A DNA stretch of 64,000 nucleotides from Deltaproteobacteria bacterium. GTDB taxonomy: Bacteria; UBA10199; JACPAL01. Under the pieces are notes generated by a model that was not told the DNA's origin, made no database searches, and was given only the letters and a program-made list of their open reading frames with translations. Made by a program: the position numbers and the translations under genes. How positions within the stretch are numbered: the first letter of the stretch is position 1; every line of letters begins with the position of its first letter. Below are positions 37,778 to 44,287 of this stretch, one piece after another. Where the stretch lies: NCBI GenBank assembly GCA_016180845.1, contig JACPAK010000007.1:1-64000 (forward strand), read 5' to 3'.

Positions 37778-38533
37778 ATGGACATTCTACAGTCACTCTT
37801 TCGGTGGATTCACGTTGTGGCCGGCATCATCTGGATCGGGCATCTCTATTTCTTTAACTGGGTGAATGGTCCCTTCGCCGCCACCCTCGATGGAGAGACG
37901 AAGAAAAAGGTCGTTCCGGAGCTGATGCCACGTGCCCTCTTCTGGTTCCGATGGGGCGCTGCCTATACATGGGTCACCGGCGTTCTTCTTTTAATGCTTG
38001 TGTTCTATCACGGCGGGACCCTCTTTGACGACCCGTCTCAAGGCTGGGGACTTAGTGCCATTATCATGATCCTCGTCGTCTTCGCCTCCCCTTTTATTTA
38101 CGATGCCTTTGTCAAAACGATCGGAAAGAAGAATCAGAAGGTCGCGACCGTCGTCGGTTTCATTCTGATTTCAGGGATCGTCTGTCTCATGAATGAATGG
38201 GCCGGGTTTGGGTATCGCGGTTATGTCATCCATACCGGCACGATGTTCGGGACGATCATGGCGTTCAACGTCTGGTTCCGGATCTGGCCGGCTCAACAAA
38301 AGATCATTGCTGCGGTAAAAGGTGGACAGGCACCCGATGCTGAGCTTGTTGCGATGGCAGGCCTCCGATCGCGCCAGAATACCTACTTCTCGATCCCGCT
38401 GATCTGGACAATGATCAACGCCCACACCACCTGGGCCTCCGGGAGCAAGATTTTCCTGTTTGCGGTGATCGCCATCGCCTGGTTCGGCACGATGCATCTC
38501 TATAAGAGAGCTGGGAAGGTGAAGGGGTTTTAA
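37778..38533 (+). CDS. PuuD-like membrane protein (urate oxidase N-terminal domain family)
   Basis: A 251-residue protein with about seven hydrophobic segments matching the membrane domain of cytochrome-c-linked urate oxidase (PF06181): FRWIHVVAGIIWIGHLYFFNWVNGPFA at the start holds conserved His residues that could ligate haem, with more His in GYVIHTGTMFG and NAHTTWASG. The C-terminal cytochrome c domain of full PuuD is absent, and no purine genes are nearby, so urate as substrate is doubtful. AAGGAGGGGG lies just before the ATG. A TTGAAT-N16-TAAGAT promoter is plausible about 50-75 bases upstream. Confidence 0.8.
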   Translation: MDILQSLFRWIHVVAGIIWIGHLYFFNWVNGPFAATLDGETKKKVVPELMPRALFWFRWGAAYTWVTGVLLLMLVFYHGGTLFDDPSQGWGLSAIIMILVVFASPFIYDAFVKTIGKKNQKVATVVGFILISGIVCLMNEWAGFGYRGYVIHTGTMFGTIMAFNVWFRIWPAQQKIIAAVKGGQAPDAELVAMAGLRSRQNTYFSIPLIWTMINAHTTWASGSKIFLFAVIAIAWFGTMHLYKRAGKVKGF

Positions 38534-39024
38534 GGCTCCTGATGGACCACCTGGAGATTGACCCCCCTCTGCCACTCTCGAGTCTCTAGATTCAAAAAGT
38601 GCGTGGATAATATAAAAAGATCATTGTTCTCTGAAGCGCTTGCCTGTCTGTAATCAGGCATCTCAAGAGGTTTGAATTTATTTTTCCCTGCTCCCTTTTT
38701 CTGTTCTCTCTTTAATCTCTGCTTATCCCATTCAACAAATTGAAGCCCTTTCGTCGTCATCCTCTGCTTCGCAGTCTCAAAATTACTACTGATCCTGAAA
38801 TAATAGAGTTCAGATCGCTTTGGTTTATCGGCCCTCTCCCTTTTTCCCGCTGATCCCCCCTTCTTTGTCACTGATTTCATCATATCCTCGATCTGCTGAC
38901 TCTTGGTAGCGTCATAGACCGCCCCTGCAGGAAGGTGCTTCCTCCTCAATTCCTCCAAAAAATTCCCATCCGCCGCATGGAGAATGCCTCCAAACAGAAA
39001 AGTGAAGGCGAAGATCAAAACCAC
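38530..39024 (-). CDS. Hypothetical secreted basic protein
   Basis: A 164-residue protein with an N-terminal signal peptide (hydrophobic run, then LFGGILHAADG with a likely cleavage after HAA). The mature part is rich in Lys and Arg, with no Cys and no recognised domain. The start is a GTG at 39024, 19 bases after the stop of the cysteine-rich protein gene, so it is probably the last gene of that operon. Its stop overlaps the PuuD-like gene by 4 bases tail to tail. Function unknown. Confidence 0.7.
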   Translation of the reverse strand: MVLIFAFTFLFGGILHAADGNFLEELRRKHLPAGAVYDATKSQQIEDMMKSVTKKGGSAGKRERADKPKRSELYYFRISSNFETAKQRMTTKGLQFVEWDKQRLKREQKKGAGKNKFKPLEMPDYRQASASENNDLFILSTHFLNLETREWQRGVNLQVVHQEP

Positions 39025-39043: not shown

Positions 39044-41743
39044 TTAAAAATCCCCGTAATAACAGGCTCCTTCTGCTACCGCCCCCGAGTCTGCAACACA
39101 CCAGCAGGCCGGGAGTCCACGATCTGTTGTTGTCCCCAGAACACAGGTATACAAACAATACAATCCATACCCATAAGCATAATCGTCCCCCCACCAGGAG
39201 ACATCTCCACCGGCGAGATAGCCGGTCAATTCTGAGGTCAGCGCCACACCCCATCCGATCCCCGTCGTCCCATTGGCCCAGCATCCGACCCAGTCATTAT
39301 CTCTCGGTCCCCCAGGCTCATAGTTCGCCGAACTGTCATGGCAAACTTGCCCCAAGAAGGGCCAGAGCTCGTCACTCAAGAGATCCAGTGCACCTCTCAC
39401 ACAGGTTGAGGTATCCTCCTCACCAGAACCAGACCCACCTCCTCCTTCGGGACTTTCGGGATAGCGACTGCAAAACGTCTGATCCCGATTCTCCCCACAA
39501 AGAGTTCGACAATAATCCCTGTCTTCAGAGGCACAACGGTCAACACAGAACGGCTGATTGGGATTCTCGACACAAAGCGGCTCACAATAACCACCCGCTC
39601 CCCACCCACGCCCATCGGCACATCGATCATCACACCAGGAGAGGTCTGGATTCTCCCGACAGAGCGAACCACAGAACCCGTAGCTGTTGTGACTTTCACA
39701 GAGGTTATCGCATTCAGAATTATTTCTATCCCCCTCCGGACAAAGATCACCGCACCACTCTAACCCCGGATGATCCTCACACGCATCGAAGCAGTAGGGG
39801 TCTCGATGCTCCCGACACCGCTCAGCACAATGAGGAGGGGGTGAAGCACCACGACAAGGGGCGTTTGTGATCTGTGTGCAGAGGCCATTATCACCGTCAT
39901 AGCCATCCGTAATATTTTCAAGACACCATGTCGTGCAGGTCGCTTGGAGTGCGGCAGAGTGGTCACGACCGGCTGCTAAATCAAGACAGTCAGGTGGGAT
40001 TCCATTCTCCCGTTCACTCGAACCGACAGTATCCGCCCGCTCCGGTTCGTCATATTCATAATCGTCGTCGGGTGGTTCTCGTTCACTGGAAGGGCCATGG
40101 TCAGGCGGCACATCAGGGCTCACATCATGATCATGCTTCAGAGAGGGATGCGCCGCCTGGACAATTGACTCGCACGCCTCCCTCTCCTCTTCTTCTGTCC
40201 CCATGTAGCCAACACATTCCGGCCAGAGGCTGAAGACACCACCGCGGGTTCTGAAGTCATCCTCATAACCCAGCAAGTATAATTGACCCCTCGTTGCATA
40301 TCCTGGAGAAGCTGGAGGACGTAGGGTATATTCCCCAGCCCTCGCCTCATAGTAGTAATAAGCGCCTATCGAACGAATATCATTCTCTGTCCATGCACCT
40401 CTACTAAACCTGTCACCCATCGCTTCGGCCTCTGCGTCAGAATCTGTCACGGCATCAAAAACACGCCTCCACCAGGGGTGCTGTGCAATGGTTTCGGGAT
40501 TCCAAGAGTACTGAAAAAACATGACAGCCCGGCCGAGGTATTGAAAAAGCCGCGGGCTCCCAGATGGATCTGGACCCAGGTGCATACGAGCGGTACTCGC
40601 ACTGCCATTGTAAACCAATTCCGCCGTTGCCTCATAGATCAGGTGCTCGAAATTAAAAACCCTCTGCATCATGATTCTGTCAAAGTCCCACATAAATTTA
40701 TAAAAAATGGATTCGGCGATAAACGCAGTCGATTCATCGTGCCACATCGGTGCCCCATCCTCCGCATCACTTCTAGATCCAGTCCTCCCGGTAAAATAAT
40801 TCACAATATGGACTGCTTCGTGAATGACCGGGGCGGTTGTTAACCCGACATAGCTCGTTGCAGACATTCCCATCTGTCGATAGTCATCGTCTACGACGAT
40901 CGGCCCTAATCTCGAGGTTTCTGCCCCACCACCAATATCACGCCATACCAAACCAAGCGGTACCCCTCGAGCAAGATAATCATAAAAAAGCAGTTCCAGA
41001 TTGTCATGATGACTCGATCTAAATTCTCTCGTTCCTATGAGACTGTGGAGCACAAATCGCGCCGCTTCGAGGGCGATATAGAAATAGACGCGATATTCTG
41101 AGTGAGGAGGGCCAATGAGTCTTTCATCGCCACTATCAATGGCAGCATACATGTTGTTAACGGCACGTTGAACCGAGTATGCCAATGCATTCCTCTCCTC
41201 TAGACTCCAGGGGGTCGAAACGGATTCTGCTGGGGTGGCATGAAGCTCCGAAATGACAAAATTATCCCAGGTCGAGTTGTTGTGACTGTCATCAATTTTA
41301 TTTTTGGTATTAGATGCCTCACTAGGTCCGTCAACACGCCGTAGAATCATTTCGCTCCACCCCTCCCTTGCCAGCTTGGAAAAGGGTTGTCTCACATGAA
41401 TGATCTCAACCCTCTGTTCATTTTCCCCTTCGCCAATCGTACGAATCTCCCCATTGTGACAGACGTCGGTTGCCGACTTCCCCCAAAAGTTCCCCTCACA
41501 GATGGTTCGATGACAGTTGCCAGGAGTGATGATCGGATCGGGATTAGCAGAAAGAACCTCCTCCCCATGACAGTTGGAGGGGCCCAGAGCTTCATCTAGC
41601 GGTTCGTCTAACGGCCGGAACATCCCACCAACAATATCAATAAAATCGGAAAAATCAGGCCAGTCGCGTCCCCCCCAGGCCTGACCCCATGCCTGAAACG
41701 GCAGAAGCAGGAGCGTCATAAACAAAAGAAGGCTCTTCATCAT
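39044..41743 (-). CDS. Secreted zinc-metallopeptidase-like protein with nine Cys repeats
   Basis: An 899-residue secreted protein. Residues 1-20 are a signal peptide (MMKSLLLFMTLLLLPFQAWG). HEAVH at 308-312 is an HExxH zinc site, and MWHDESTAFIAE supplies a third ligand, Glu337, 25 residues later, the gluzincin arrangement. After an acidic linker (about 535-580), residues 639-758 contain nine short units of the form C-x3-C-x(7-11) with an aromatic before the next Cys, for example CGSLCRENPDLSWC. A further Cys-rich globular part ends the protein. I chose the ATG at 41743, which overlaps the previous stop as ATGA and puts the signal peptide at the N-terminus. The family is not recognised; protease activity is inferred from the motif. 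Confidence 0.82.
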   Translation of the reverse strand: MMKSLLLFMTLLLLPFQAWGQAWGGRDWPDFSDFIDIVGGMFRPLDEPLDEALGPSNCHGEEVLSANPDPIITPGNCHRTICEGNFWGKSATDVCHNGEIRTIGEGENEQRVEIIHVRQPFSKLAREGWSEMILRRVDGPSEASNTKNKIDDSHNNSTWDNFVISELHATPAESVSTPWSLEERNALAYSVQRAVNNMYAAIDSGDERLIGPPHSEYRVYFYIALEAARFVLHSLIGTREFRSSHHDNLELLFYDYLARGVPLGLVWRDIGGGAETSRLGPIVVDDDYRQMGMSATSYVGLTTAPVIHEAVHIVNYFTGRTGSRSDAEDGAPMWHDESTAFIAESIFYKFMWDFDRIMMQRVFNFEHLIYEATAELVYNGSASTARMHLGPDPSGSPRLFQYLGRAVMFFQYSWNPETIAQHPWWRRVFDAVTDSDAEAEAMGDRFSRGAWTENDIRSIGAYYYYEARAGEYTLRPPASPGYATRGQLYLLGYEDDFRTRGGVFSLWPECVGYMGTEEEEREACESIVQAAHPSLKHDHDVSPDVPPDHGPSSEREPPDDDYEYDEPERADTVGSSERENGIPPDCLDLAAGRDHSAALQATCTTWCLENITDGYDGDNGLCTQITNAPCRGASPPPHCAERCREHRDPYCFDACEDHPGLEWCGDLCPEGDRNNSECDNLCESHNSYGFCGSLCRENPDLSWCDDRCADGRGWGAGGYCEPLCVENPNQPFCVDRCASEDRDYCRTLCGENRDQTFCSRYPESPEGGGGSGSGEEDTSTCVRGALDLLSDELWPFLGQVCHDSSANYEPGGPRDNDWVGCWANGTTGIGWGVALTSELTGYLAGGDVSWWGDDYAYGYGLYCLYTCVLGTTTDRGLPACWCVADSGAVAEGACYYGDF

Positions 41744-43626
41744 TTTCTCCGTTGGACCCGTTCTCTCATGATCGTGCTTGAGGAGGGATCGCTTAGTCCT
41801 GGCCCACGGGCCGGCGGTATCGGCAGATTGAATGCCCCACAGGTCCCATTCAGACACATCTGATCGGGATATGGCAACTTATGCGCCATGGAGTGGTACA
41901 CCGCTAGCATCCTGGCAAGCTCCACCTTTCTTTGCTTAAGAAGCTCAAAGATATTTCGGGAATTCACAAACAGCGGCCCCAAATAAACATTCCCAAATCC
42001 CTGTGGTGTGTTGGAAAAGAAAACCCTCGTCCCGGAGCTCCCCCCTGTGACTCGTCCTGCCGTTGCTGTCACCTCACTCACAAAGTCCTGTTGCTCGATG
42101 CCGAAGTTGATCGGTGCAAAGTCTAGGTCTTGCAGGATCGAAAGCACAATCGACTGTGCCATCACTGCGAGCTCCTCTTCTAAAAGGGCCTCGTGATCCT
42201 GAGGCCACAAGAGCATTCGATTGTTGTGCAAACGCCTCTGATAAAAGATGTGGACCCACTGATGGGCCATGAGGGCACTGATCACAGGGCTGTGTCCATC
42301 CGAAGGCCTCCAACCCCCTTCGCTTGACTGAAGATACGATTCTGTTGTTGTTCTCCCACTGCTATTCGTTGATGTCCGTGTGACTGGATAAACATCATAC
42401 CCTTGCACCGTTCCCCATCCCCGTTCCCACAATCCACCTCCACGCCATGTGCCATACGAGGCGTAGCAATGCCCGTCCGCCCAATCGCCTGATACATTAT
42501 GATTCGCGCGTGATCCTTTGGCCCTCTTGGCCTGACAATCACCCGCGATTGTAGATCGGATGCAGAGCTTCTTCTCTTCTGCCTTATATTCCATCAACGC
42601 ATCCCGGGGAAGGTTACGACATCGACTGATCTCGATCTTGTCCCTGTTTGCAACCCTATCGGCAATCATTCCGAATCCGGACCGATGCCCCCAGACAGTC
42701 TGGTCCTTCATTTCCTGAAGGATGTTCCAGATCGTCACGACCGTCTCGCGGGCCTCTCTCTGATCCCCAAAATTTCCGTTGGCAATCATTTCACCCAATC
42801 GACCAATCACATTCTCCAAGAGTATCCTGTGATGGGTTAAAAACTCATTATCGACCCTTCCATCCGATCCGGAAGAGAACCGTTCACAAGAGACAGAAGA
42901 GCCCGGGCCATACCCATTGGCACGACATCCCTCCGCACAGACAAAACCCCACCGCTGATGCTGCCGACTGTAAGGGACATCCAGATGATTAACACTCGTA
43001 AGAGCGGCCCCCATCTGATGGGGGTGATCCCGGTCGGTATGAATTGATAGTGCATTCCTTGCCGTCGTGAGTTCACTTGTATTGCTCTCCAGCTGACCAA
43101 AGAGATATCGACCATAAAGAAAACCGTAATCATCATCGATCAAGTTCCTTCGATTCCACTCCAGCGACAAGACCAACACCGGTGATTCTCCAAAATGACT
43201 CCTCCCCAACGGGTGACAGTTCGTGGCGTAAAGTGGGGGCCCCATCAGAAATGATTTATTGTCCGGTACCAATTGCCCACACCCTGTCTCGAGTCGACAT
43301 TGATCAGTCAGACGCACAATCTTGTAATGTCCCCGATTTTCATCACCAAGATTTGGATTCGAACTGGCCGTTCCACCCACGAGACTGTTGTAACTCCTCG
43401 TCTCATCACCGGAACCGCAGAAAAAGGAACCGACCCCAATCCCCAAGCCTCCATTAGGAATCAGCGTATCCCGGCTGATCAGTTCATTCCTGAATTGGGG
43501 GGTTAGAAGACGATTGTAAGGCTCGTCAATTGAGACTATCTCGGAATGAGGCATTCTGGTCCCAAATTCCTCGGCCCATAAGGGACACGCAAGAACAAGG
43601 AGATGAAGAATGAAAATAAATCTCAA
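41740..43626 (-). CDS. Secreted paralogue-like protein with degenerate HQxxH peptidase motif
   Basis: A 628-residue secreted protein with a signal peptide (FILHLLVLACPLWAEE). At residues 455-459 the sequence is HQWVH in MAHQWVHIFYQ, matching the position and surroundings of HEAVHIVNYF in the next gene but with Gln for the catalytic Glu. A downstream EEELAVMAQ (from 483) could supply the third zinc ligand. About fifteen Cys suggest disulfides. It may be an inactive peptidase homologue, or a binding partner of the next gene product, with which it is coupled by ATGA. The start is TTG at 43626, preceded by GAAGG. No known family. Confidence 0.8.
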   Translation of the reverse strand: MRFIFILHLLVLACPLWAEEFGTRMPHSEIVSIDEPYNRLLTPQFRNELISRDTLIPNGGLGIGVGSFFCGSGDETRSYNSLVGGTASSNPNLGDENRGHYKIVRLTDQCRLETGCGQLVPDNKSFLMGPPLYATNCHPLGRSHFGESPVLVLSLEWNRRNLIDDDYGFLYGRYLFGQLESNTSELTTARNALSIHTDRDHPHQMGAALTSVNHLDVPYSRQHQRWGFVCAEGCRANGYGPGSSVSCERFSSGSDGRVDNEFLTHHRILLENVIGRLGEMIANGNFGDQREARETVVTIWNILQEMKDQTVWGHRSGFGMIADRVANRDKIEISRCRNLPRDALMEYKAEEKKLCIRSTIAGDCQAKRAKGSRANHNVSGDWADGHCYASYGTWRGGGLWERGWGTVQGYDVYPVTRTSTNSSGRTTTESYLQSSEGGWRPSDGHSPVISALMAHQWVHIFYQRRLHNNRMLLWPQDHEALLEEELAVMAQSIVLSILQDLDFAPINFGIEQQDFVSEVTATAGRVTGGSSGTRVFFSNTPQGFGNVYLGPLFVNSRNIFELLKQRKVELARMLAVYHSMAHKLPYPDQMCLNGTCGAFNLPIPPARGPGLSDPSSSTIMRERVQRRK

Positions 43627-43750: not shown

Positions 43751-44287
43751 CTAAAAACCAGTGCCCGTGATACGGATGGGGTCCCGTGCTAGGCGTACAA
43801 GCCCGCGCGCGTCAATTCCAAAACGGTCAAAGAGATACCGGTCAACGCGCTCTGAAGAAAGCTCGGCCTCGTTAAATTCCTGATGGGAAACGAGGACCAG
43901 TCCTAATCGACGACTCAGGATCGCGAAATCGATATCCCCATCATTATCGATATCCCCTGCCCGTACTTCCAGGTCAGGGTTCCCCTGATGAATACTCTCA
44001 TTTAATGTCGGCGTCGTCCGCCATTCCGTCTCAGCCAAAACCAACCGGTCTCTCCAGACACGACAGCTGAAATTTCCAAAAAAGGCGCTGCATTCATACT
44101 TCTTTTCAGTTCGATCAGTTCCTCTTGTCTCCTCAAACGTATATTGGGCTGAGGTGGTCGCCGGAGGCGAATCCTGAGTTTCCAGAAAATCGAATGTCGG
44201 ATGGGGAGGCAAAATCGTAAGTTCTTCAAACCTTGCCAGCTCTTCCGGAGTCGCTGGTCTCCATCCACCAAGTTCTACACCTTCCAT
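43751..44287 (-). CDS. Hypothetical protein with FG-GAP/VCBS-like calcium motif
   Basis: A 178-residue protein without an evident signal peptide. Residues AGDIDNDGDIDFAIL match the Asp-rich calcium loop of FG-GAP/VCBS repeats, present once rather than in a propeller set. Two Cys (YECSAFFGNFSC) could form a disulfide. The ATG has a good GGGAGGT ribosome-binding site, and motif copy 5 lies 24 bases upstream. It precedes the secreted pair but is separated from it by 123 bases. Function unknown. Confidence 0.72.
   Translation of the reverse strand: MEGVELGGWRPATPEELARFEELTILPPHPTFDFLETQDSPPATTSAQYTFEETRGTDRTEKKYECSAFFGNFSCRVWRDRLVLAETEWRTTPTLNESIHQGNPDLEVRAGDIDNDGDIDFAILSRRLGLVLVSHQEFNEAELSSERVDRYLFDRFGIDARGLVRLARDPIRITGTGF

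What the first reader, a model, noticed from the sequence alone, without database searches (positions are those of the whole stretch)
39044..43626. Coupled secreted pair: peptidase-like HEAVH and pseudo-peptidase HQWVH
Two signal-peptide proteins overlap by ATGA. The second carries HEAVH with a third-ligand Glu 25 residues on; the first carries HQWVH in a matching setting (AHQWVHIFYQ beside IHEAVHIVNYF), with Gln for the catalytic Glu and an EEELA stretch downstream. An active and an inactive homologue made together suggests a protease with a regulatory or substrate-binding partner, or a toxin-like complex. I recognise no family for either.
Basis: partly seen in the sequence, partly recalled or inferred. 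Interest (0 to 1): 0.75.

Follow-up and report, generated by a model that had tools for sequence, protein, structure and literature searches.

The report
Secreted protease with dead-twin partner
A little-known bacterium carries several copies of a three-gene set that makes a probable zinc-dependent protein-cutting enzyme together with a secreted look-alike that has lost its cutting residue, so the look-alike probably holds or steers the target rather than cutting it.

Summary
The window's overlapping pair (Q: HQWVH, 41740-43626; A: HEAVH, 39044-41743) is one of seven copies, four in this genome and three in a genome of the same family. Every A protein, including a truncated orphan, keeps HExxH and a downstream ExxA, which is the gluzincin pattern. 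Six of seven Q proteins keep HQx[VI]H plus ExxA 24-25 residues on. The seventh (GEMVH, SGTA) has lost one His ligand and the Glu ligand. Q and A are homologous at this site: a matrix built only from A's glutamate helices ranks Q's ExxA first in six of seven Q proteins and second in the other (0 of 400 shuffles match). Q is clearly more conserved than A (37% against 21% mean identity). No curated family covers either protein, and no relative was found outside this bacterial family. Best reading: an extracellular heteromeric metallopeptidase with a metal-binding pseudopeptidase subunit. Fold, zinc binding, activity and complex formation are all untested; the structure models were too poor to use. 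Active/inactive peptidase pairs are known elsewhere (M16B), but these families appear new.

The parts
41740..43626 (-). Gene 1 (Q): secreted pseudopeptidase, 628 aa, TTG start, signal-like N-terminus
   Evidence: family of 7 in alignment A1
42250..42264 (-). HQWVH motif of Q (residues 455-459); Gln in place of the catalytic Glu
42166..42177 (-). ExxA of Q (EELA, residues 484-487), predicted third metal ligand, 25 residues after the second His
41740..41743 (-). ATGA overlap of Q stop and A start; the Q-A junction overlaps or abuts in all seven operons
39044..41743 (-). Gene 2 (A): secreted HExxH protein, 899 aa, predicted gluzincin-type metallopeptidase
41354..41596 (-). N-terminal Cys-rich domain of A (about residues 50-130), the most conserved module of A; candidate docking or latency domain
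40808..40822 (-). HEAVH motif of A (residues 308-312)
40724..40735 (-). ExxA of A (ESTA, residues 337-340), predicted third zinc ligand
39464..39988 (-). Cys-rich repeat region of A (repeated [FWY]CxxxC units)
   Evidence: read directly from the sequence
39047..39448 (-). C-terminal module of A, fast-diverging; 56% identical to that of the orphan A gene G000:C10
38530..39024 (-). Gene 3 (T): small secreted protein, 164 aa, conserved third gene of the cassette

Best explanation
The window holds one copy of a duplicated three-gene secreted cassette, Q-A-T. A is a gluzincin-type zinc metallopeptidase (HExxH plus ExxA) with a Cys-rich N-terminal domain, an acidic/proline-rich linker, Cys repeats and a variable C-terminal module. 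Q is its homologue in which the general base Glu is replaced by Gln. Q keeps the three metal ligands in six of seven copies, so it should bind metal and substrate without cutting, as an engineered HQxxH substrate-trap mutant would. The most likely mode is a disulfide-rich heteromer outside the cytoplasmic membrane: Q is the conserved substrate-holding or positioning subunit, sometimes fused to adhesion-type domains; A is the faster-evolving cutter, docked through its conserved N-terminal domain; T is a small assembly helper or inhibitor. Shown by sequence: motifs, Q-A homology at the site, conserved operon, co-inheritance, signal-like N-termini, relative rates of change. Inferred: fold, zinc, activity, complex, and the roles of Q and T.
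For: Seven conserved Q-A-T units with overlapping or abutting Q-A genes. HExxH and ExxA in 8/8 A proteins, second-His-to-Glu spacing 23-49. All six weak PDB profile hits for the A core are gluzincins (thermolysin entries and carboxypeptidase Taq; E 0.13-0.78). Q-A homology: hhalign aligns HQxVH with HExxH and ExxA with ExxA; 1 of 466 column shuffles with the motif kept fixed reach the real score; a matrix from A's glutamate helices finds Q's ExxA as the top site in 6/7 Q proteins and second in the other, 0 of 400 shuffles match. Trees agree on the pairs win+G1C4 and G0C3+G1C11 for both genes. The HQ helix and Glu helix are among Q's five most conserved windows. DUF11/CARDB and DUF4215 domains occur on some Q proteins. 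ExxA, with the Ala under the zinc, is described for gluzincins (PMC6414381, PMC3711286).
Against: No structure of usable confidence (mean pLDDT 38). No profile library recognises A as a peptidase above threshold. One Q copy (G1C4) has lost two of the three ligands, so the metal site is not essential to Q in every copy. An orphan truncated A has no Q beside it. No direct evidence of interaction. All seven copies come from two genomes.
Confidence: 0.5

Rival explanations
1. Q and A are homologous and co-expressed but act separately. A is a stand-alone secreted peptidase; Q is an independent metal- or ligand-binding surface protein or decoy (for example protecting A's substrate or binding an inhibitor).
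For: Q carries adhesion-type domains in two copies; an orphan A without Q exists; no interaction data.
Against: Seven of seven Q genes have an A gene immediately behind, with overlapping or abutting reading frames, and the pairs are co-inherited.
Confidence: 0.22
2. Neither protein cuts: both are structural or adhesive proteins whose zincin-like two-helix core is kept for folding or metal binding.
For: The HExxH region is not the most conserved part of A; no curated peptidase family matches.
Against: HExxH and ExxA are retained in 8/8 A proteins although the cores are only 18-30% identical to the window's; a non-catalytic domain would not need the Glu, which is exactly what Q has lost.
Confidence: 0.12
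3. An antagonism cassette: A is a diversifying secreted effector peptidase with a variable C-terminal module, Q its carrier or stabiliser, and T an immunity protein.
For: Fast-diverging A and C-terminal module; small divergent last gene T; a C-terminal module shared with an orphan A.
Against: No known effector or trafficking domain; the weak Tox-MPTase3 match (E 0.17, one member) is below any threshold; the diverging parts are not a clean swap of one end module.
Confidence: 0.1
4. The resemblance of the two motifs is coincidental and Q is unrelated to A.
For: Whole-profile hhalign probability is only 12% and the alignment covers 54 columns; full HMM cross-scores are near zero bits.
Against: The independent glutamate-helix test, which excludes the HxxxH motif, finds the expected site at the expected distance in all seven Q proteins.
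Confidence: 0.06

Closest known systems
M16B heterodimeric peptidases (mitochondrial processing peptidase; bacterial SPH2681/SPH2682, TTHA1264/TTHA1265, AlbF/AlbE) - PMC12731061, PMC11266112
   Same: One active and one inactive homologous subunit; in bacteria encoded side by side; the inactive subunit helps form the active centre or bind substrate.
   Different: M16 uses HxxEH, not HExxH, and another fold class; no sequence relation was found here. Q keeps a likely metal site.
ACE3 (M2 gluzincin pseudopeptidase of mouse, rat, cow, dog) - PMC1925091
   Same: Natural HQxxH in a gluzincin, with the catalytic Glu replaced by Gln.
   Different: Mammalian, no co-transcribed active partner, recognisable M2 family.
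Small secreted gluzincins with HExxH and ExxA (FP0506 elastase; M48 and PF04228 families) - PMC6414381
   Same: HExxH plus ExxA pattern; a secreted gluzincin known only from a narrow bacterial group.
   Different: Single proteins, no pseudopeptidase partner; A's Cys-rich N-terminus and Cys repeats are not described there.
Clostridial collagenases (gluzincins) - PMC3711286
   Same: Large secreted gluzincins, third-ligand Glu 28-30 residues on, conserved Ala three residues after it.
   Different: No detectable sequence relation; different accessory domains; no pseudopeptidase twin.
Botulinum neurotoxin with its non-toxic NTNHA partner (named from general knowledge only, nothing fetched)
   Same: Adjacent genes for an HExxH protein and a homologue lacking the motif, which form a complex.
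   Different: No sequence relation found or sought; no evidence that the present cassette is a toxin.

Membership tests
Gluzincin metallopeptidase, clan MA(E) (protein A) | HExxH motif | tested here: met
   8 of 8 members
Gluzincin metallopeptidase, clan MA(E) (protein A) | Third ligand Glu on a downstream helix, usually ExxA | tested here: met
   [DN]ExxA in 8 of 8, 23-49 residues after the second His; at sequence level only
Gluzincin metallopeptidase, clan MA(E) (protein A) | Zincin fold | tested here: inconclusive
   single-sequence AlphaFold, pLDDT 38; weak PDB profile hits are all gluzincins
Gluzincin metallopeptidase, clan MA(E) (protein A) | Zinc binding and peptide hydrolysis | not testable with these tools
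   needs protein
Any curated Pfam or NCBIfam peptidase family | Profile match above the curated cut-off | tested here: not met
Pseudopeptidase homologue of A (protein Q) | Homology to the active enzyme at the site | tested here: met
Pseudopeptidase homologue of A (protein Q) | Catalytic residue set incomplete across the family, not in one gene only | tested here: met
   HQ in 6/7; the seventh (GEMVH, SGTA) lacks one His and the Glu ligand
Pseudopeptidase homologue of A (protein Q) | Retained metal binding | not testable with these tools
   ligands present in 6/7 by sequence only
M16B active/inactive heterodimer | HxxEH in the active subunit | tested here: not met
   A carries HExxH; no M16 profile match
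M16B active/inactive heterodimer | Adjacent genes for homologous active and inactive subunits | tested here: met
M16B active/inactive heterodimer | Physical heterodimer | not testable with these tools
   no multimer prediction available
Toxin-immunity or effector cassette | Known effector or trafficking domain | tested here: not met
   no Pfam or NCBIfam match above threshold

The most novel reading that the evidence does not exclude
A previously undescribed family of secreted heteromeric gluzincins in which a natural HQxxH substrate-trap pseudopeptidase is the conserved core subunit and its active homologue is the interchangeable, fast-evolving cutter, kept as several parallel three-gene copies in one bacterial lineage.
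Probability: 0.35. Interest if true: 0.66.

Novelty: new variant of a known kind. Interest (0 to 1): 0.52.

Why it matters
Pseudoenzymes that stay paired with their active twin are a live question, but I know of few bacterial HExxH examples encoded in one operon. Here nature has kept the same E-to-Q arrangement across diverged parallel copies, with one copy that has gone further and dropped two metal ligands. That gives a ready comparative series for asking whether a pseudopeptidase works through its dead active site or only as scaffold. The three protein families are also unclassified and would add new entries to peptidase and domain catalogues.

Tried and rejected
Curated libraries: nothing for Q, A or T, apart from accessory domains on two Q copies (DUF11/CARDB; DUF4215). 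Solved structures: nothing significant. Search for relatives elsewhere: none in GTDB contigs with the Q motif pattern, viral contigs, plasmids, the 46 genomes searched for the phylum or samples of 385 genomes. Single-sequence folds of the two domains were uninformative, so no fold search was run on them. The 7-row alignments were not handed to the structure tool because its stated rule lists loci from other tools only. N-terminal Cys domain of A: found only in A proteins; matches elsewhere were E 0.01 or worse. Simple promoter and terminator scans gave no more hits than expected from shuffles. Horizontal acquisition by GC was considered: cassette genes have ordinary GC (46-55%, against 50-52% for the loci), so no support. 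A script run of the shuffle test crashed once and was repeated with failed alignments left out.

Full report
What was checked. I call the first protein Q (HQWVH), the second A (HEAVH), and a third small secreted gene directly behind them T (38530-39024).

A repeated unit. Searching 60 related genomes found relatives of both proteins only in the window's own genome (G000) and in one other genome of the same family, G001. There are seven Q genes: four in G000 and three in G001. Each is followed by an A gene with overlapping or abutting reading frames, and each A is followed by T; T in G001:C11 is split between frames. Neighbouring genes outside the three differ from place to place. G000 also has a truncated orphan A at contig C10 without a Q. 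The Q and A trees both support the pairs window + G001:C4 and G000:C3 + G001:C11, so the genes travel together. No relative was found in GTDB contigs, viral contigs, plasmids, the phylum's 46 searched genomes, or wider samples. The nearest named genomes, judged from one other window protein, are groundwater 'Deltaproteobacteria' metagenome assemblies.

Protein A. HExxH is present in 8 of 8 copies (HEAVH, HEAAH, HEMGH twice, HELVH, HEATH twice, HETTH). It is followed after 23-49 residues by [DN]ExxA, also in 8 of 8. HExxH plus ExxA is the gluzincin signature (PMC6414381). In clostridial collagenases the third-ligand Glu lies 28-30 residues on, and the Ala three residues after it sits under the zinc (PMC3711286). 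A profile of A's core against all PDB sequences gives only weak matches (E 0.13 to 0.78), but all six are gluzincins, thermolysin entries and carboxypeptidase Taq, over the active-site stretch. Pfam gives weak sub-threshold hits, three of four of them to zincin-like families. So A is probably a gluzincin, but it belongs to no curated family.

Protein Q. Six of seven copies have HQx[VI]H with ExxA 24-25 residues on. The seventh, G001:C4, reads GEMVH and SGTA: it has lost one His ligand and the Glu ligand together. That joint loss fits the two residues being parts of one metal site in the other six, though it is a single case.

Are Q and A homologous? Whole-profile hhalign finds one local match that aligns HQxVH with HExxH and ExxA with ExxA, but with low probability (12%, P 0.0024). 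Using the motif segments, P is 5e-5. Because the motif itself inflates that figure, I shuffled A's columns while keeping HExxH fixed: 1 of 466 shuffles reached the real score, and 9 of 451 when only the right side was shuffled. A test that leaves out HxxxH altogether is stronger. A matrix made only from A's glutamate helices, slid along each whole Q protein, puts the top site exactly at Q's ExxA in six of seven proteins and second in the seventh; 0 of 400 column-shuffled matrices do as well. The seven Q proteins are related, so this is closer to one strong observation than seven. I take common ancestry of the site as likely.

Which partner is conserved. Mean pairwise identity is 37% for Q and 21% for A. 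Q's pseudo-active helix and Glu helix are among its five most conserved windows, whereas A's most conserved part is the N-terminal Cys-rich domain, not the HExxH region. In the closest pair (G000:C3 and G001:C11), A's N-terminal domain is 81% identical, the linker 88%, the zincin domain 61% and the C-terminal module 32%; Q is 81% identical overall. Two Q copies carry extra domains typical of extracellular proteins, DUF11/CARDB and DUF4215. This fits Q as the conserved binding or positioning subunit and A as the diversifying cutter, docked through its N-terminal domain. That division of labour is inference.

What could not be settled. Single-sequence AlphaFold models have mean pLDDT 38. They show helices at both motifs but prove nothing, and no fold comparison was made. 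Zinc, activity, complex formation and the role of T are untested.

Place among known things. Working like: M16B heterodimers, where an inactive homologue encoded next door completes the enzyme (PMC12731061, PMC11266112). But A has HExxH, not HxxEH, so this is not an M16 member. A natural HQxxH gluzincin exists in ACE3 (PMC1925091), without a co-encoded partner. Roles of inactive HExxH proteins are described as poorly understood (PMC3650047). I therefore call it a new variant of a known kind, resting on families that are themselves new.

Noticed in passing
43751-44287 (minus strand): Gene upstream of Q, 178 aa, with a weak FG-GAP-like stretch (DIDNDGDIDFAIL); same strand, 124 bases before Q; no counterpart was seen next to the other six cassettes.
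   Followed up: partly
L026:6892-8265 (G000:C10): Orphan truncated A gene with HEATH and DESTA but no Q beside it; its C-terminal 134 aa are 56% identical to the window's A while the rest is about 31%, suggesting module exchange or gene decay.
   Followed up: partly
L029:5100-5660 (G001:C11): The T gene behind this cassette is split between two reading frames, with a repeated short stretch (FSTPERF) at the break; decay or assembly error.
   Followed up: partly
L025:6569-11125: This Q copy has an N-terminal extension of roughly 850 residues with DUF4215 Cys-rich repeats, absent from the window's Q.
   Followed up: partly
L027:9874-11901: A 675-aa protein with YCF48/BNR repeats and a laminin-G-like domain lies directly upstream of Q on the same strand, probably co-transcribed.
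   Followed up: no
L023:2712-3368 and L023:8918-9718: Two ORFs flanking this cassette, without Pfam matches, share the same C-terminal end (WHGPQxGLFFEW), resembling outer-membrane barrel ends.
   Followed up: no
Q genes, 3' ends (for example window 41740-41780): Most Q proteins end in clustered basic residues (RRK, RRRR, MRR, GKR, SRK, MKR); this is likely a by-product of purine-rich ribosome-binding sequence for the A gene inside the Q frame.
   Followed up: no
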